Assembly: GCA_027451865.1 (NCBI GenBank)
Contig: DAIDHW010000004.1
Location: 62,001 to 126,000 of the forward strand
DNA: 64,000 nucleotides
Reading direction: 5' to 3'
Source: Leptolyngbyaceae cyanobacterium clean351
Lineage (GTDB): Bacteria > Cyanobacteriota > Cyanobacteriia > DAIDHW01
Positions 5,280 through 37,627 of this stretch are shown in pieces. The notes beneath the pieces were generated by a model. That model saw only the letters and a list, made by a program, of their open reading frames with translations. It had not been told where the DNA came from and made no database searches. Position 1 is the stretch's first letter, and the number at the start of each line of letters is the position of its first letter. Position numbers and translations under genes: made by a program.

Positions 5280-5798
5280 GACCTCTAGGGCCTCGGAGAC
5301 CTCCCGGGACTCGTAACCGAGGGCTTCTAGGGATATCTCCACCTCCGCACGCACTGAGTCTGGAATAGTCCCCCGGGCAGAGGGGAGGCGCAGCTTGCCT
5401 TTGAGCTCTAGAGCAATGCGCTGGGCGGTTTTCACGCCAACACCGGGGGCTCGGCTCAGGGACCTGGCATCACCGGTGACAATAGCCTGGACTAGGGCGG
5501 GCAGATCCCAGGTGTCTAACAGGGCCAGGCTGGCTTGGGGACCGACACCATTCACCGCCAACAGTTGCCGGAACAGGTCACGCTCCGAGGCACCGGCAAA
5601 CCCGTACAAAGTCAACTGGTCTTCCCGGGTTTGCAGGTGGGTAAAGACCTGGATTGGCTCCCCGAGGGGGAGAGCTCGGGCCATCCGGCCTGTGACCTGG
5701 AGTTCGTAGCCTACCTGCTGGACCTCTAGGACTAAAATAAAGCGGCCACTTCCGGCCGGCTCTAGGGTAATTGCAAGCCCCCGTAGGTAACCAATCAC
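5202..5798 (-). CDS. ruvA: Holliday junction branch migration complex subunit RuvA
   Basis: RuvA binds four-way DNA junctions as a tetramer and loads the RuvB motor for branch migration during recombinational repair. The protein starts with the family-typical MIGYLRG OB-fold. Two helix-hairpin-helix motifs follow (LLAVNGVGPQASLALL and LSRAPGVGVKTAQRIALEL), then a C-terminal domain near residues 150-198 that contacts RuvB. At 198 residues the length is normal. Its start overlaps the polA stop by 4 bp, so the two are probably cotranscribed, polA first. The 3' end overlaps the convergent patD-like gene. No ruvB or ruvC is in this window. Confidence 0.93.
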   Translation of the reverse strand: MIGYLRGLAITLEPAGSGRFILVLEVQQVGYELQVTGRMARALPLGEPIQVFTHLQTREDQLTLYGFAGASERDLFRQLLAVNGVGPQASLALLDTWDLPALVQAIVTGDARSLSRAPGVGVKTAQRIALELKGKLRLPSARGTIPDSVRAEVEISLEALGYESREVSEALEVLGSQLSPSTPAEGWIREAISWLSRG

Positions 5799-8596
5799 TT
5801 AGCCTCCATCCAGTTATGTCCCTGGTGGAGGTCCACTGGGAGGGGTACGGAGAGGGGGAAAACCGTTTCCATGATCTGCTTAATGCGCGGGGCAAGGTCC
5901 TCCCATTCTTCGGGGGGAGATTCAAATACCAATTCATCATGGACCTGCAGTAGCAGGCGGGTTTGGTAGCTCCCAAGCAGCTGATCGATTTGGATCATAG
6001 CTAGCTTAATTAGGTCGGCGCTAGACCCCTGGATGGGGGCATTGGCCGCTGAACGCAGCACAGCTGCATCATTCTGGTTGCGAATCTTGAGCCGCTCCAA
6101 GTCGATGGCCGCCGGCGAGGTCCCCTGGAGGTGACGGAGGCTATCGGTGGCGAATTGAAAGTAGCGGCGGCGCCCGAGGAGGGTCTCTACGTACCCTTGG
6201 GCAATGGCCTGCTGCTGCAGGAGCCTCAAGTACTCAAATACTCGATCGTAGCGCTGGTTGAAGCGGCGAATAAACTCCCGGGCCCTGGACACCTCCACCC
6301 CAGTTTGGCGGGCAAATTTCTGGGCACCCATCCCGTAGAGGACACCGAAGTTGATCACCTTGCCGAGCCGCCGCTCCTCGGCACTAATCTCCTCCTTGTC
6401 TAAGAGCACCTGGGCAGTCAAGATATGAACATCCTGACCCTGCTGGTAGGCCGCCATGAGCACCGGCTCCTGACTGAGGTGGGCTAGGATCCGCAACTCG
6501 ATTTGGGAATAGTCAGCACTGATTAAAAGCCAGCCAGGTTCGGGAATGAAGGCTCGGCGGACCTGCCGGGAAAAGGCGGTGCGGATGGGGATATTTTGGA
6601 GATTGGGGCGGGATGAGGAAAGGCGACCAGTGCTAGTGACTGCCTGGTTAAAGTCCGTATGGACGCGACCAGTGTCGGGGCGCACTAGTTGGGGGAGGCT
6701 ATCCACGTAGGTAGCCTTTAGTTTAGCCAGAGTACGATACTCCAGGACCGCATCCACTACCGGGTCTTCCCCTTGAAATTTTTCCAGGGTGGCAGCATCC
6801 GTAGAGTATCCCAGACTAGTACGGCGAGACTTGCGGTGGTCTAGGTGGCGTTGCTCAAACAGGAGGTCACTGAGTTGCTTGGGGGAACTAAGGTTAAAAT
6901 TCTGCCCGGCAGCGGCCCAGGCCCGGGCCTCAATCTGCCGCAGGTCCTGCTCCAGGCTGAGGGAAAATTGTTTGAGGTAGTCTAGATCCACCCGGACACC
7001 CCAGGACTCCATCTGGGCTAGCACTGGTTCTAGGGGTAACTCCACCCGGGTAAATAGTTCCTGGAGAGCGGGCAACCGGGCCAATTCGGCTTGCAGGGGT
7101 CCTACCAGCCGCCAGGTAGCGTGCACATCCATGGCACAGTACTGAGCCACTGCAGCAACCGATAGGTTAGCGATGGTCTGCCCCTTGGGCACTAAGTCTG
7201 TGTAGCTTTGACAGGTCAGTCCCAGGTATCTTCGGGCCAAGTCCTTGAGGCTGTGACCGGCATCGGGGTTGAGAACATAGCTAGCCAGCATGGTGTCAAA
7301 GACCACCCCCCCCAGGTTTATCCCCTGCACCTGGAGGATGCGGCGGTCAAATTTGGCGTTTTGGAGAGCCTTGGGGTACGCAGGGCTAGTGAGGATGGGC
7401 TTGAGGGCCTCCAGGACCTTTTCCACCTCCAAGTTAGGCCCCTGGTTGTGACCTAGGGGAATGTAGGCCATATCAGCACACCCCTGTCCCCACGCACAGC
7501 CTATACCCACTAGTCGAGCATCTTGGGGCTCAAGGGCCGTAGTCTCCGTATCCCAGGCAGTCAACTCGCCGGGGCGCAGATGGTTTATAAAGTCCCGCAG
7601 GGCTTCTGGGGTGCTGAGGATTTGGGGTTGGAGTTGAGGGAAGAGGGGCTCCTGTTGGTCCGCGGCACTGAAAAACCACACATCCTCTGGCTCCTCAACC
7701 GGTGCCCCTAACAGCGGGGCCACGGCCGGTAACTTCTCCAGCAGTGTGCGTAACTCTAATTGACTTAGAAGCGCCGCCGCCTCCTGGTAGTCAAACCCCC
7801 TCAAGACCAGATCCATAGGATCCACCTCTAGGGGCAAATCCAGGACTAGCTGAGCTAGGATCTGGGACTGCTGGGCTTCTTCTCGTCCCTGGATCAGTTT
7901 TTCCCGGGTGGCTCCCTTAATCTCATCGAGGTGGTCATAGACCCCCGTTAGGGAACCGTAGGTGTTAAGCAATTGCACCGCCGTCTTCGGTCCGATACCG
8001 CGCACCCCAGGGATCCGGTCAGAGTTGTCACCGCATAGGGCCTTGTAGTCGACCACCTGCTGGGGTTGAACACCTAATTTTTGTTGTACTTCCTCTGGGC
8101 CATAAACTTCCACCCCGCGGCCCCCTAGGTGGAGGATCTGAATATCTTGGCCAGGCCTAAGGAGCTGGAAGAGGTCTTGGTCACCGCTGAGAACCGCCAC
8201 ACGGTAGTCATGAGCCAGAGCACCGGTGGCCAAGGTACCAAGCACATCGTCCGCCTCAAAACCTGGCTTACTAACCATGGTCAGGCCCAGAGCCGCCAGG
8301 ACTGCCTGTAATTGCTCTAGGTCCTGGTAAAACTCCTCCGGCGCCTGGGTCCGACCCTGCTTGTAGTTACTGTCTAAGGCGTGACGAAAGGTCGGCCCCT
8401 CCAGATCAAAGGCCACCCCGAGGGCTCTGGGCGGGTAGGCCTGGACCACCTCGAATAGGGCCTTCAAAAAGCCGAAGCATACACTAGTCGGCAGACCAGA
8501 CTGGGTACGCAGGCCACCTGCCGAGTTTTTGGCATGGGCAAAATAGGAACGAAAGGCCAGGGAGTGACCGTCTACTAGTAACAGCAGGGGCTTCAT
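5795..8596 (-). CDS. polA: DNA polymerase I with 5' and 3' exonucleases
   Basis: Okazaki-fragment processing and repair polymerase, 933 residues. The N-terminal 5'-3' nuclease shows LLVDGHSLAFRSYFA, EADDVLG and the H3TH segment GVRGIGPKTA. The 3'-5' proofreading domain keeps its catalytic acids (AWDTETTALE and YCAMDVHATW), unlike some Pol I enzymes that have lost proofreading. The polymerase has motif A (DYSQIELRILAHLS), motif B (GKVINFGVLYGM) and motif C (QVHDELVFE). No intein interrupts it. The ATG at 8596 faces the 257-bp gap before htrA, and the stop overlaps ruvA by 4 bp. Confidence 0.96.
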   Translation of the reverse strand: MKPLLLLVDGHSLAFRSYFAHAKNSAGGLRTQSGLPTSVCFGFLKALFEVVQAYPPRALGVAFDLEGPTFRHALDSNYKQGRTQAPEEFYQDLEQLQAVLAALGLTMVSKPGFEADDVLGTLATGALAHDYRVAVLSGDQDLFQLLRPGQDIQILHLGGRGVEVYGPEEVQQKLGVQPQQVVDYKALCGDNSDRIPGVRGIGPKTAVQLLNTYGSLTGVYDHLDEIKGATREKLIQGREEAQQSQILAQLVLDLPLEVDPMDLVLRGFDYQEAAALLSQLELRTLLEKLPAVAPLLGAPVEEPEDVWFFSAADQQEPLFPQLQPQILSTPEALRDFINHLRPGELTAWDTETTALEPQDARLVGIGCAWGQGCADMAYIPLGHNQGPNLEVEKVLEALKPILTSPAYPKALQNAKFDRRILQVQGINLGGVVFDTMLASYVLNPDAGHSLKDLARRYLGLTCQSYTDLVPKGQTIANLSVAAVAQYCAMDVHATWRLVGPLQAELARLPALQELFTRVELPLEPVLAQMESWGVRVDLDYLKQFSLSLEQDLRQIEARAWAAAGQNFNLSSPKQLSDLLFEQRHLDHRKSRRTSLGYSTDAATLEKFQGEDPVVDAVLEYRTLAKLKATYVDSLPQLVRPDTGRVHTDFNQAVTSTGRLSSSRPNLQNIPIRTAFSRQVRRAFIPEPGWLLISADYSQIELRILAHLSQEPVLMAAYQQGQDVHILTAQVLLDKEEISAEERRLGKVINFGVLYGMGAQKFARQTGVEVSRAREFIRRFNQRYDRVFEYLRLLQQQAIAQGYVETLLGRRRYFQFATDSLRHLQGTSPAAIDLERLKIRNQNDAAVLRSAANAPIQGSSADLIKLAMIQIDQLLGSYQTRLLLQVHDELVFESPPEEWEDLAPRIKQIMETVFPLSVPLPVDLHQGHNWMEAK

Positions 8597-32907: not shown

Positions 32908-34629
32908 TTATACCTTCGATCCCCTGAATTCCTCTTGCACCTCCCGGATAATCGCTGTCAATTCTTGTCTGATCATGGCAATTTGTCCGATTTCTGCATG
33001 AGATGCAGCCATTGCTAAATCAGTTTCTTGTCGCGCTTTAGCAATGTTCTCCTCGAGCTGGACGTAGACCTGAGATTCAAATTCTTGCAGCTGGCCCTCG
33101 ATTTGTTGTTCTAGATCAACAGCAATCGTCTTGAATTGGCTGATAATATCGCGGCGCACGTCAGCCATCTTTCTCTCATACTCATGCTCTTTCTGCATTG
33201 CATGGTACTCCAAGCCTACAGATACAAGGGCAAGAGCTGGACCTAAAACCATAGCTGCATTGCTAATGTCTCTGGCAATTCCTACTGCCTGCCAAGGTTT
33301 AAAGCGGTAACCCATGAATTTCCCCAGACCATACACACCTTGATGGAGGCCACTACCTGCAACGCTCATTGGTTTCAGAAATCCTTGACCCACGGGAAAG
33401 GATAATGCCAGTGCAGTGGCAACCTCTTGCAGCCACCCAACTTGATCTTGCAGCTGCTGTTTGTTGGAATTGTTTAGGGGAGTGTGGCTAGGACCTTGGC
33501 CGTTAAAGTTGAGTCGGGCAACAAATGCTTGGGCCAAGTTACTTTGGAACTCGGCTTCAACTTCAAGACGAATAGATTCAATGGCACTCTTAATTGCGTC
33601 ATTAAGAGCATGTTCTGCTTTCTCATAGTGCTTACCGATGTTGGTTTCAGACTGTTTGCTCAAGCCTTCAAATCCTGAATTACCCACAGCCGAAGCAAGC
33701 CGCGAGCCTTCAGTGAAGATTGCCTGTGACATTGACAGGACAATGCCTTTAACCTTAGTGCGCAGGCGCTCCCGCTCTTTGTTAATGCGACGAGATAGCC
33801 GCAACAGAACCTCCAGAAACGCTGTATCTTCATTGGAGTTCCGGGCGAAGCCGATCTGAGCATCATCCAGACAACCCATCAAGATTCGTACCGGCGTGTC
33901 TAGACCTGTAAGGGATTTACGGCGTTCCACAAAACGATTGAGTTCAGTAATAAAAGTGTCAAAGTGGCTGACTTCGATTAGGAAATCATCACCCTCATCA
34001 ATCCCCTCGCAGTAGTCCTTAGCATCAATGAAGCAAATGGGAAACTCGTTGAGCACGTAGGGTTTAAGGGATTCGGCCAAACTATACTGGTAACTGGCAA
34101 TCTTTTGATCTTCTGCTCCTGCTGCTGCTGACATCTTATTGATCACCAGCATGATCTTCCAGCGGTAACCCTTGTCGTAAGCTAGCTTTTTGAAGTTCTC
34201 GACGGTGAGTGTATCAAAAAGCATGTGTGTCAGACAGAACACCAGCAGATCAGCTTTGGCGATTGCTTCATAGGTAATGTCATCGTGATCGGTACGGTCA
34301 GTAAATAGCCCAGGGGTATCAATTATTTTGATGCCGTTCCAGTCGTAGGGTGTTGTCGCATCCGTGGCAATATCAGCATCAATATAGATATCTCGCCGTC
34401 CAGTGAGTGCCGAAATAATAGTAGACTTGCCTGCACTGTACTGCCCAATGAAGGCAACGGTTAATACTCCTTGCTGCTTGTAGTTCTGTAACTCATCGTG
34501 GAGTTTTTGCCGGACTGTGGCGAGGTCCTTCGAGGTGGCTGATGCCAACAGAGTGTCAAATTGAACGCGGGCTGCTTCGAATCGCTTGCTTAGATCAGCT
34601 ATTTTGAATGTTTGGCTGCTTTGAGACAT
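32908..34629 (-). CDS. Dynamin-like large GTPase (LeoA-like), second gene of the pair
   Basis: A 573-residue GTPase of the bacterial dynamin class. G1/P-loop GQYSAGKST is at residues 62-70, the G2 threonine falls near TDATTPYD, G3 DTPG at 104-107 and G4 NKMS at 164-167. Long helical regions at about 270-370 and 475-573 would form the stalk, separated by two hydrophobic stretches (400-435 and 445-475) that could act as a membrane paddle. Size and layout match LeoA, a component of Leo/Eleos dynamin pairs. It starts 10 bp after its partner gene, so the two form an operon. Base composition is visibly more AT-rich than its neighbours, pointing to horizontal transfer. An anti-phage role is inference. 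Confidence 0.8.
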   Translation of the reverse strand: MSQSSQTFKIADLSKRFEAARVQFDTLLASATSKDLATVRQKLHDELQNYKQQGVLTVAFIGQYSAGKSTIISALTGRRDIYIDADIATDATTPYDWNGIKIIDTPGLFTDRTDHDDITYEAIAKADLLVFCLTHMLFDTLTVENFKKLAYDKGYRWKIMLVINKMSAAAGAEDQKIASYQYSLAESLKPYVLNEFPICFIDAKDYCEGIDEGDDFLIEVSHFDTFITELNRFVERRKSLTGLDTPVRILMGCLDDAQIGFARNSNEDTAFLEVLLRLSRRINKERERLRTKVKGIVLSMSQAIFTEGSRLASAVGNSGFEGLSKQSETNIGKHYEKAEHALNDAIKSAIESIRLEVEAEFQSNLAQAFVARLNFNGQGPSHTPLNNSNKQQLQDQVGWLQEVATALALSFPVGQGFLKPMSVAGSGLHQGVYGLGKFMGYRFKPWQAVGIARDISNAAMVLGPALALVSVGLEYHAMQKEHEYERKMADVRRDIISQFKTIAVDLEQQIEGQLQEFESQVYVQLEENIAKARQETDLAMAASHAEIGQIAMIRQELTAIIREVQEEFRGSKV

Positions 34630-34639
34630 GGTATAGCTC

Positions 34640-37183
34640 CTAGGTGAGCGTTAGGTGGTGTTGAATGGAGACGTGTTCCTGCAAGATGGTGCAGATTTCC
34701 TCTGGGGATTTGGTCAAGGGCAGGGCTAAGGTAGTCTGAATCTGGAGGGTGCGTCCAAAATCCCGATTTACTGCGTGGACTTTCTCGCTGATGGAAATAT
34801 CGTTCAGGGGTCCGGGTTGGTCTGTAGCCCAGTCAACTATTCGTTTAGCATAAGCACAGTTTAGGTAGTTAGCAGCATGGGCTAGTTTTTCTTGGGCAGT
34901 CTTGAGTTGACTGGCAATTGCTTCAACGCCTTGAATCAATTCTTCAAGGTAACTGTCAACAGCAGCAGCTATCGATTGGCAGTAGTTTTGGAAGCTTTCT
35001 TGGGACTGCTCAAGAGTTCTTGTCTGCTGTTTCTTCAACTGCTTCCGGAGAGAGGAGCTGATCTTAGCAACGGCTTTACGGCGCTGCTTATCCCGGGATT
35101 GGAATAGTCCGGCTAGGAAGCTTACGATACCTCCTGCAACACTCAGCAGACCCAAGGGTGGAAAGATAGATACTAGAGTTGTGCCTAAGGCCGCTACTAA
35201 TAGGCCTACAGTTCGAACAGAATCTCTGTCGAAAAAATCAATGAAACTACGGCTTTGCCCTGAGAATTGAAAACTCGAAACTTGTAGCTGGCTGATGATT
35301 TTGAACTCATCAGCAATTTCGCCGATCACTTCCCTCACTTCATCCTGAAAACGCTGAGCAGCATTTTCAGCCGCCGCTCGGAGCTGATTTTCAAACTCTA
35401 GTCCTCTCAGGACCTCTTTCCAGTCTTTTTTCATTTCAGACTCTTTTGCTTTCCAGTGCTCCTCTGCAAAAGGGTTCACTTGCTCAAACAGAGTCTGAAA
35501 CATTTCCCGAGTTTTTTGTTCTAGTTCCCTTCGGTAGTCTCCTTCAGCCCTTTTGAGTCGCTGGTCAAGACCTTGACGTGTCTCCCGGAGTTGCGCTCCT
35601 AGAGTATCGTAGGTCTTTGCCTGTTGGGTGATCCATTGGTGGGGGGTATTGATGGAGGCACCTGTCGATCCTAGGAGAGTTTGGGACCGTCGAATGGCCC
35701 CATGACTTATTAGTGATGTTCGAATAGAATCGAGGAAATTTTGAATCCGGCTAGCTGCAAAAAGTTGCTTAGAATATCTTTCAAACTCTGGTTCTTGTGC
35801 CAGCTGAGCTGCCAAAAGCATAACTGGAATAACTGTTAGATAATCATTAGGGTAGTGTTGCTGAGCGTAACGCTTAATCCGATTCAGGTGCCCACCAATA
35901 CCACTTTTACCTTCCTTAGCGAACCATCGCTCCGGATTTTTGAGGAAATACTCTAGCCGCTGCGGCTCTCGGAGATTGTACTGAATATTCAGCAGAATAA
36001 TCAGCGGTTTAGTTTTCTCCTTCAGCAATTTTAAAAAGGCGAACTCAGATTCTTGAATGCTGTCATCGGTTACCACATAGCAAATAACATCAGACTCCTC
36101 GACAATACTGCTGGCAACCTCCTCATCAGTTTTTCCCCCTCCCCCTGGTGCACCAATCCCGGGCGTGTCAATAACGCGGATATTTTTCCACTCATACACT
36201 CGGTTATAACGGGTTGTGCGCTGTTTACCAATGCCAATGGACTCCCAACCTCCCCTGGTAATTACTGCATGGAGAGTACTCTTTCCTGCTTTTGTGCGCC
36301 CCATAAAGGCGATACTGAAATGATTAAGTGACCTTTCTTTTGCCCGTAGTGCCTCGCGTACAGATTCCAAATCTCGTAGAATTTCAGCTGAAAGTTTTTG
36401 TTGAGTTTGCTCGAGCTGATTAGCTACCTCTTGCGCTGTTTGGTGTTCTCCCTTGCCAACGGTTTTACCTTTTATAGTATCAATTACGTGCTGAAGTCCA
36501 TGGCGCAACTCCTGGAGGGATGAGAAGACCATTCTCAATGATTGGTCAGCATATCTAAAATCTTCTCTGGCAACCTTGGCACACCTCTGGATTGCACCGT
36601 CGTACTCTGGCCCAGATAGTAGAATTTCACGCCGAACCTGCTCAATTTTCTCCTCAAGCCCTGGAGTTAGCTGACCTATTTTATTTATAAGCCGCCTTGA
36701 CAGCATGGACTCGGCGGTCTTGAGGAATCGTGCCCTCACTGAAAGCTCAGTTTTGTTATGACTAACAGCGCGGTTATTGATACGCGGAGCATCCTTAATC
36801 ATATGTTCAATTTGATACTTATCAATGCCCCAGACTTGAGCGATTTGGTTAACAATTTCTCGTTCTAGTCCAGAAAAGTAACCGTCAACCTGAGCAACCA
36901 TCAGTATCTTCTTTAGGACTTCACTTCGCTCACCTATAGGGACATTCTGAGCAGACTTTTCTAGAGGTATTTGGGTGTCATCCCGCTCTAGAATCTTCTT
37001 CATTTCTGCAAGTGTCAACTCACGGACATGTGACCGCTCAACAAGATCCTCTAGGAATCGTAATTCTTGGTCGTGGAGTTGCTGGTCAGCACAAATAACA
37101 TGGGCCAGCAGCAGAAAACTATAATCTAAGGTTTCACGGTGCTCTAAGGATTCCCTACCTATCATTCTCAAAACTCTCGCCAA
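34640..37183 (-). CDS. TerB-domain dynamin-like GTPase (LeoBC-like), first gene of the pair
   Basis: An 847-residue GTPase. Residues 15-125 look like a TerB-type helical domain (FLLLAHVICADQQLHDQE, then ILMVAQVDGYFSGLERE). A helical linker follows, then the GTPase: P-loop GRTKAGKST at 295-303 and G3 DTPG at 339-342. The G4 position reads NIQYN (399-403) instead of NKxD, so nucleotide specificity may be altered. Residues 530-640 are coiled-coil, 658-694 form a hydrophobic hairpin (LLVAALGTTLVSIFPPLGLL) suited to membrane insertion, and a second coiled-coil follows. The architecture fits LeoBC of Eleos-type systems. It heads the operon with the smaller GTPase and is AT-rich relative to its surroundings. 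Confidence 0.8.
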   Translation of the reverse strand: MARVLRMIGRESLEHRETLDYSFLLLAHVICADQQLHDQELRFLEDLVERSHVRELTLAEMKKILERDDTQIPLEKSAQNVPIGERSEVLKKILMVAQVDGYFSGLEREIVNQIAQVWGIDKYQIEHMIKDAPRINNRAVSHNKTELSVRARFLKTAESMLSRRLINKIGQLTPGLEEKIEQVRREILLSGPEYDGAIQRCAKVAREDFRYADQSLRMVFSSLQELRHGLQHVIDTIKGKTVGKGEHQTAQEVANQLEQTQQKLSAEILRDLESVREALRAKERSLNHFSIAFMGRTKAGKSTLHAVITRGGWESIGIGKQRTTRYNRVYEWKNIRVIDTPGIGAPGGGGKTDEEVASSIVEESDVICYVVTDDSIQESEFAFLKLLKEKTKPLIILLNIQYNLREPQRLEYFLKNPERWFAKEGKSGIGGHLNRIKRYAQQHYPNDYLTVIPVMLLAAQLAQEPEFERYSKQLFAASRIQNFLDSIRTSLISHGAIRRSQTLLGSTGASINTPHQWITQQAKTYDTLGAQLRETRQGLDQRLKRAEGDYRRELEQKTREMFQTLFEQVNPFAEEHWKAKESEMKKDWKEVLRGLEFENQLRAAAENAAQRFQDEVREVIGEIADEFKIISQLQVSSFQFSGQSRSFIDFFDRDSVRTVGLLVAALGTTLVSIFPPLGLLSVAGGIVSFLAGLFQSRDKQRRKAVAKISSSLRKQLKKQQTRTLEQSQESFQNYCQSIAAAVDSYLEELIQGVEAIASQLKTAQEKLAHAANYLNCAYAKRIVDWATDQPGPLNDISISEKVHAVNRDFGRTLQIQTTLALPLTKSPEEICTILQEHVSIQHHLTLT

Positions 37184-37554: not shown

Positions 37555-37627
37555 AGCTGGTGACAGGATTTGAACCTGCGACCGGCTGATTACAAATCAG
37601 CTGCTCTACCGGCTGAGCTACACCAGC
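37555..37627 (-). tRNA. tRNA-Thr (anticodon TGT)
   Basis: The minus strand folds into a full cloverleaf: acceptor GCTGGTG/CACCAGC, D-stem GCTC/GAGC, anticodon stem GCTGA/TCAGC with loop TTTGTAA (anticodon TGT, threonine) and T-arm GCAGG-TTCAAAT-CCTGT. The discriminator base is T; no CCA is encoded. Its 3' end points toward the GTPase pair, the usual side for tRNA-targeted insertions. It lies 49 bp downstream of psbK on the same strand. Confidence 0.95.

What the first reader, a model, noticed from the sequence alone, without database searches (positions are those of the whole stretch)
32908..37183. Two-gene dynamin-like GTPase operon, likely Eleos-type (LeoA/LeoBC) defence pair
Sequence shows two GTPases 10 bp apart on one strand. 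The 847-residue protein has a TerB-like N-terminal domain, P-loop GRTKAGKST, DTPG, coiled coils and a hydrophobic hairpin. The 573-residue protein has P-loop GQYSAGKST, DTPG, NKMS and two hydrophobic stretches. Established: LeoA/LeoBC dynamin pairs occur in bacteria and the Eleos system was reported as anti-phage. Inference: this pair is that system in a cyanobacterium. The DNA is AT-richer than its neighbours and sits next to a tRNA, both expected of a mobile defence island.
Basis: partly seen in the sequence, partly recalled or inferred. Interest (0 to 1): 0.7.

Follow-up and report, generated by a model that had tools for sequence, protein, structure and literature searches.

The report
TerB-bearing Eleos-type dynamin pair
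A cyanobacterium carries a laterally acquired pair of membrane-remodelling (dynamin-like) GTPase genes that match the known bacterial anti-phage system Eleos, and the comparison shows that one protein of the pair carries, in most relatives checked across phyla, an extra TerB-like domain in front that could be its sensor.

Summary
Two adjacent minus-strand genes, 10 bp apart, encode dynamin-like GTPases. PADLOC identifies them as LeoBC (E=2.4e-110) and LeoA (1.6e-122), the two parts of Eleos. The predicted LeoBC structure matches bacterial dynamins, including LeoA (4AUR). The pair is foreign to this genome: GC3 is 0.43/0.48 against 0.67±0.03 for 38 neighbouring genes. It is patchy (23 of 390 same-class genomes at E<1e-100; 4 of 26 and 1 of 27 in two well-sampled genera), sits among different genes elsewhere, is plasmid-borne once, and is often broken. 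Adjacency to tRNA-Thr is real, but no attachment repeat or neighbouring defence cluster was found, so "mobile module" is supported and "defence island" is not.

It lies outside PADLOC's LeoBC model. Two cyanobacterial genomes encode LeoBC and LeoA as one polypeptide; in one of these, TerB is replaced by TPR repeats. The two proteins co-diverge (r=0.97).

Likely mechanism: a TerB-gated hetero-dynamin that assembles on the inner membrane during infection. Defence was not tested. A new member of a known kind.

The parts
34640..37165 (-). leoBC: TerB-like domain + dynamin-like GTPase, probably 841 aa from ATG at 37165 (ORF is open from a TTG at 37183, 847 aa)
36806..37114 (-). TerB-like domain (residues 24-126 of the 847-aa reading), with D33, E40, D100 and invariant E107
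   Evidence: Pfam TerB; PDB 2OU3 and 2JXU matches; residue counts
35987..36313 (-). GTPase domain core of LeoBC (residues 291-399): G1 GRTKAGKST, switch QRTTR, G3 DTPG, G4 position N399 without the usual NKxD
   Evidence: Pfam MMR_HSR1 1.1e-12; invariance in 48 pairs
35093..35221 (-). hydrophobic paddle of LeoBC (residues 655-697), between long helical arms in the model
32908..34629 (-). leoA: dynamin-like GTPase, 573 aa
   Evidence: PADLOC LeoA 1.6e-122; 4AUR 2e-11
33196..33270 (-). hydrophobic tip of LeoA (residues 454-478)
37555..37627 (-). tRNA-Thr(TGT), neighbour; no second copy of its 3' end in the window, so not shown to be an integration site

Best explanation
The two genes are a horizontally acquired Eleos-type system. 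LeoBC and LeoA form an obligate hetero-complex of two dynamin-like GTPases (inferred from conserved pairing, co-divergence and natural fusions). At rest it is cytosolic or loosely membrane-bound. The N-terminal TerB-like domain of LeoBC, a small helical domain with two conserved acid motifs, most likely senses the trigger (an ion change or membrane damage caused by a phage) or docks the complex at the inner membrane. GTP-driven pairing of the two G domains then unfolds the long helical arms, inserts the hydrophobic paddles, and builds an assembly that alters the inner membrane of the infected cell, so that progeny release fails or is delayed. Shown here: gene pair, domains, motifs, fold class, foreign composition, patchiness, pair co-divergence. 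Inferred: heteromer, TerB sensing, membrane assembly, anti-phage outcome.
For: PADLOC full-length matches. AlphaFold model (pLDDT 79, pTM 0.75) matches BDLP, IniA, LeoA 4AUR and the Campylobacter dynamin pair 5OXF/5OWV. 48 pairs, nearly all with LeoBC immediately upstream (median gap 11.5 bp); distance matrices correlate r=0.966, r=0.81 within cyanobacteria, 0 of 2000 permutations. Single-ORF LeoBC-LeoA fusions in two genomes. TerB in 22 of 26 N-termini from several phyla with E107 48/48, D100 45/48, D33 41/48; TPR repeats replace it in one fusion, as expected of a sensor or docking module. Foreign composition; patchy; different neighbours; plasmid copy in Pseudanabaena galeata; broken copies. 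Precedent: B. subtilis DynA forms membrane clusters and delays phage lysis (PMC8844932); a TerB-like protein is part of anti-phage Shango (PMC10250203).
Against: No activity data for this pair or any cyanobacterial homologue. No defence-gene cluster around it. Identity to non-cyanobacterial TerB-LeoBC is only about 25-37%, and the experimentally tested Eleos proteins could not be compared directly. Some cyanobacterial LeoBC-like proteins lack TerB (L129; L063, L066 and L064 groups), so TerB is not essential to the family. LeoA of ETEC was implicated in vesicle release rather than defence (PMC4159319).
Confidence: 0.8

Rival explanations
1. A membrane-maintenance or vesicle-forming dynamin pair (like the proposed role of ETEC LeoABC in vesicle release, or cyanobacterial SynDLP/NosDLP-type membrane remodelling) rather than a defence system; acquired laterally for an envelope-stress benefit.
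For: ETEC leoA/leoB deletions halve vesicle-associated protein (PMC4159319). Cyanobacteria carry many dynamin-like proteins, including tandem pairs (PMC5827413). Top structural match is Nostoc BDLP. TerB domains are also linked to metal and stress responses (general knowledge).
Against: Patchy even within genera, foreign composition, variable neighbourhood, repeated decay and plasmid carriage fit a dispensable conflict system better; best profile matches are the Eleos models. The ETEC role and a defence role are not mutually exclusive.
Confidence: 0.14
2. An acquired but decaying or silent gene pair in this genome, with no current function.
For: Composition not ameliorated; several relatives have broken copies; no convincing promoter above chance.
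Against: Both reading frames are intact with all nucleotide-binding motifs.
Confidence: 0.06

Closest known systems
Eleos (LeoBC + LeoA; PADLOC models PDLC03841 and PDLC03839)
   Same: Two adjacent dynamin-like GTPase genes in the order LeoBC-LeoA, full-length profile matches to both models.
   Different: LeoBC has about 190 extra N-terminal residues with a TerB-like domain outside the PADLOC model (which matches from residue 198); the same extra front part occurs in Bacillus, Treponema, Bacteroidota and others. Activity untested.
ETEC LeoA/LeoB/LeoC (PDB 4AUR for LeoA; PMC4159319)
   Same: Same gene order (LeoC-LeoB upstream of LeoA); LeoA sequence match 2e-11, profile 5.8e-17.
   Different: LeoBC is one gene here, not split; ETEC LeoC has a predicted membrane anchor at the N-terminus, here there is a TerB-like domain and no such anchor (hydropathy).
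Bacillus subtilis DynA (PMC8844932)
   Same: Dynamin-like protein with two GTPase modules; reported to delay phage lysis from the membrane.
   Different: DynA is a single chain with two dynamin modules of another family; in most Leo systems the two are separate, but the fusions found here (L076, L077, L078) have the same general layout.
TerB (PF05099; PDB 2OU3, 2JXU)
   Same: N-terminal domain of LeoBC matches by Pfam and PDB profile searches.
   Different: Fused to a dynamin GTPase; not part of a tellurite-resistance operon.
Campylobacter dynamin pair (5OWV/5OXF) and Nostoc BDLP (2J69)
   Same: Fold class of the LeoBC model; a tandem dynamin pair in the Campylobacter case.
   Different: Sequence identity 10-12%; different families; no TerB.

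Membership tests
Eleos | LeoA-family GTPase (full length) | tested here: met
   PADLOC LeoA 1.6e-122, residues 1-566, model 1-556 of 559
Eleos | LeoBC-family GTPase (or LeoB + LeoC) | tested here: met
   PADLOC LeoBC 2.4e-110, residues 198-812, model 11-583 of 601
Eleos | the two genes adjacent on one strand, LeoBC upstream | tested here: met
   10 bp apart here; median gap 11.5 bp in 48 pairs
Eleos | dynamin-like fold with hydrophobic membrane paddle | tested here: met
   LeoBC model matches BDLP, IniA, LeoA; hydrophobic segments 655-697 and 454-478. LeoA was not modelled; its match is by sequence
Eleos | protects against phage | not testable with these tools
   needs an infection assay
LeoA/HP0731 family, NCBIfam NF041922 | curated cut-off of 325 bits | tested here: not met
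   104.6 bits: related to that subfamily but not a member by its cut-off
TerB domain (PF05099) | Pfam gathering score 24.4 bits | tested here: met
   26.4 bits for the N-terminal stretch from the ATG at 37165; 23.9 bits, just below, in the 847-aa TTG-started ORF; 22 of 26 LeoBC N-termini match TerB at E<=0.01
TerB domain (PF05099) | conserved acidic residues of the two halves | tested here: met
   D33 41/48, E40 38/48, D100 45/48, E107 48/48; metal binding itself not tested
Defence island | clustered with other defence genes | tested here: not met
   38 other window genes give only scattered PADLOC matches, one of them to a PolA-type model, and the window has polA at 5795-8596; no cluster
tRNA-integrated mobile island | repeat of the tRNA 3' end at the far edge, or an integrase | tested here: not met
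   no second copy in 64 kb, no suitable repeat pair; no integrase among the ten window genes scanned with Pfam
Housekeeping cyanobacterial dynamin | present in most relatives at a conserved locus | tested here: not met
   23 of 390 genomes at E<1e-100 against 382 of 390 for PolA; neighbours differ from locus to locus

The most novel reading that the evidence does not exclude
The TerB-like domain is the general trigger sensor of the main lineage of Eleos systems across bacterial phyla, exchangeable for other sensor modules such as TPR repeats, so that Eleos is a modular 'sensor + two-part dynamin' immune machine, with natural single-chain versions in cyanobacteria.
Probability: 0.35. Interest if true: 0.65.

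Novelty: new member of a known kind. Interest (0 to 1): 0.38.

Why it matters
How Eleos senses a phage and what its two dynamins do to the membrane is, as far as could be found here, open. A TerB-like front domain in most LeoBC N-termini examined, with an invariant glutamate, gives a concrete, mutable candidate sensor, and natural LeoBC-LeoA fusions give a single-chain form suited to structural work. The case also places Eleos in a deep-branching cyanobacterium as a lateral acquisition.

Tried and rejected
Attachment-site search for tRNA-Thr integration: no repeat. tRNA next to tgt as a conserved context: no tRNA within about 1.5 kb of tgt in 11 of 12 relatives; the other has tRNA-Leu. Defence-island idea: not supported in the window; in relatives, 114 flanking proteins gave only scattered PADLOC families, with no matched control set from other loci. 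Phage carriage: no match in 50,697 phage records. Promoter/terminator scans: at chance level. A fold downstream of leoA was not significant (z -0.61). The first AlphaFold run with 15 sequences was poor (pLDDT 67) and was replaced by the 53-sequence run. The Eleos discovery paper and the 2012 TerB survey are not held, so I cannot say whether a TerB-LeoBC link has already been described; searches of the open library found no paper stating it. The empty site could not be shown: no genome closer than the same class is held, and PolA is at most 64% identical to any sampled.

Full report
Observation. The window is G000:C4:62001-126000 of a 2.48-Mb genome. Two ORFs on the minus strand, 34640-37183 (847 aa from TTG) and 32908-34629 (573 aa from ATG), lie 10 bp apart. 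Homologues begin at or just after a downstream ATG in the first ORF, so the likely start is 37165 and the protein has 841 residues; residue numbers below follow the 847-aa reading.

Identity. PADLOC gives LeoBC 2.4e-110 for the first protein (residues 198-812) and LeoA 1.6e-122 for the second (residues 1-566, nearly the whole model). These are the two parts of Eleos. Pfam gives a GTPase domain in both, TerB in the first, DLP_helical and Dynamin_N in the second. NCBIfam's LeoA/HP0731 model reaches only 104.6 bits of the required 325, so the second protein is a relative of, not a member of, that curated subfamily. The ETEC LeoA crystal structure 4AUR is the best PDB sequence match of the second protein (2e-11; 5.8e-17 with a profile).

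Structure. AlphaFold2 with 53 homologues gives pLDDT 79, pTM 0.75: a helical N-terminal domain, a long helix pair, a GTPase domain, long helical arms interrupted by a poorly predicted hydrophobic segment (the paddle, residues 655-697), and a small alpha/beta C-terminus. Foldseek's best matches are Nostoc BDLP (7e-9), IniA, LeoA 4AUR (1.8e-7) and the Campylobacter dynamin pair. Global TM-scores are low (0.2-0.4), as expected for hinge-rich dynamins in different conformations, so the match is at the level of fold class. LeoA was not modelled.

The TerB domain. For the N-terminal stretch from the ATG, TerB scores 26.4 bits (cut-off 24.4); in the longer TTG-started ORF it was 23.9. Of 26 LeoBC N-termini from Cyanobacteria, Bacillota, Bacteroidota, Spirochaetota, Pseudomonadota and others, 22 match TerB. 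Profiles match the TerB structures 2OU3 (8.9e-6) and 2JXU (5e-4). In 48 LeoBC proteins E107 is invariant, D100 is kept in 45 and D33 in 41. PADLOC's LeoBC model starts after this domain: its matches begin at residue 198 here and at 192-214 in other TerB-bearing members. TerB is not universal: a Calothrix LeoBC (L129) lacks it, some cyanobacterial LeoBC-like proteins have other fronts (L063; L066 with an extra GTPase domain), and one LeoBC-LeoA fusion (L078) has TPR repeats in its place. I could not read the Eleos discovery paper or the 2012 TerB survey, so whether this link is already published is open.

The two proteins work together. In 48 pairs from several phyla LeoBC lies upstream of LeoA with a median gap of 11.5 bp; their distance matrices correlate at r=0.966 (0.81 within cyanobacteria; 0 of 2000 permutations). 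The first figure partly reflects shared phylogeny; the second is the more telling. In two genomes LeoBC and LeoA are one ORF: L076 (1415 aa), and L077 (1398 aa) and L078 (1711 aa) in a second genome. I take these as real fusions, but raw reads were not seen. Both proteins keep the P-loop lysine and DTPG in all 48; LeoBC has N399 but not the NKxD of standard GTPases, and LeoA has NKM(S).

Origin and mobility. GC3 is 0.435 and 0.479 against 0.666 +/- 0.032 for 38 window genes, and codon-usage distance is about double that of the other large genes. Among 390 same-class genomes 23 carry LeoBC at E<1e-100 (34 at 1e-30), against 382 for PolA. Within genera it is patchy: 4 of 26, 1 of 27, 1 of 7, 1 of 8. 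Gene neighbours differ between loci and are mostly ordinary genes. One copy lies on a Pseudanabaena galeata plasmid. Several copies are broken by stops or frameshifts, though most of these are draft or metagenome assemblies. A LeoBC tree joins the window with Shackletoniella antarctica (99/98) inside a cyanobacterial clade, so transfer seems to run mostly within the phylum. LeoBC of Leptolyngbya DLM2.Bin15 is 68-69% identical to the window's while its PolA is 60%; genomes with PolA at a similar distance have LeoBC of 45-46% (G223, G128), which fits lateral transfer. No attachment repeat, integrase or defence cluster was found, and tRNA-Thr adjacency may be coincidence.

Mechanism. Best explanation, at 0.8 for the Eleos identity and a membrane-acting defence role: a TerB-gated hetero-dynamin. 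Within that, whether the outcome is delayed lysis, as reported for DynA (PMC8844932), or membrane damage with abortive infection cannot be decided; I lean slightly to the second because decay and patchiness suggest a cost of carriage. TerB as sensor rather than anchor is a guess supported by its replacement by TPR repeats in one fusion and by a TerB-like protein in the anti-phage system Shango (PMC10250203).

Verdict. The window itself is a new member of a known kind. The added value is the conserved TerB front domain, its replacement in one case, and the natural fusions.

Noticed in passing
L076:6458-10705 (-), L077:8060-12256 (+), L078:7520-12655 (+): LeoBC and LeoA encoded as a single polypeptide of 1415, 1398 and 1711 aa in two cyanobacterial genomes; two different versions in one genome (G149).
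   Followed up: partly
L078:7520-12655 (+): TPR repeats replace the TerB domain at the front of a LeoBC-LeoA fusion.
   Followed up: partly
L066:805-3258 (+), L068:811-3228 (+): LeoBC-like proteins with an additional small GTPase domain fused at the N-terminus, followed by a LeoA-like gene.
   Followed up: partly
L121:7932-10940, L123:7235-10168, L165:10515-13355: LeoBC with long extra C-terminal parts of unknown nature (977-1002 aa; in L165 a 946-aa ORF of which only the first ~386 aa match).
   Followed up: no
L161:2972-5728 and L161:5768-7504: An uncultured bacterium with about 100 extra residues at the front of both LeoBC and LeoA.
   Followed up: no
plasmids CP067932, NZ_CP054968, NZ_CP116215: Klebsiella plasmids carry a distant LeoBC-like GTPase (27% identity, no TerB region matched).
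   Followed up: no
L045, L047, L059/L079, L087, L116, L122, L139: LeoBC or LeoA genes broken by stops or frameshifts, suggesting repeated loss (draft-assembly errors not excluded).
   Followed up: partly
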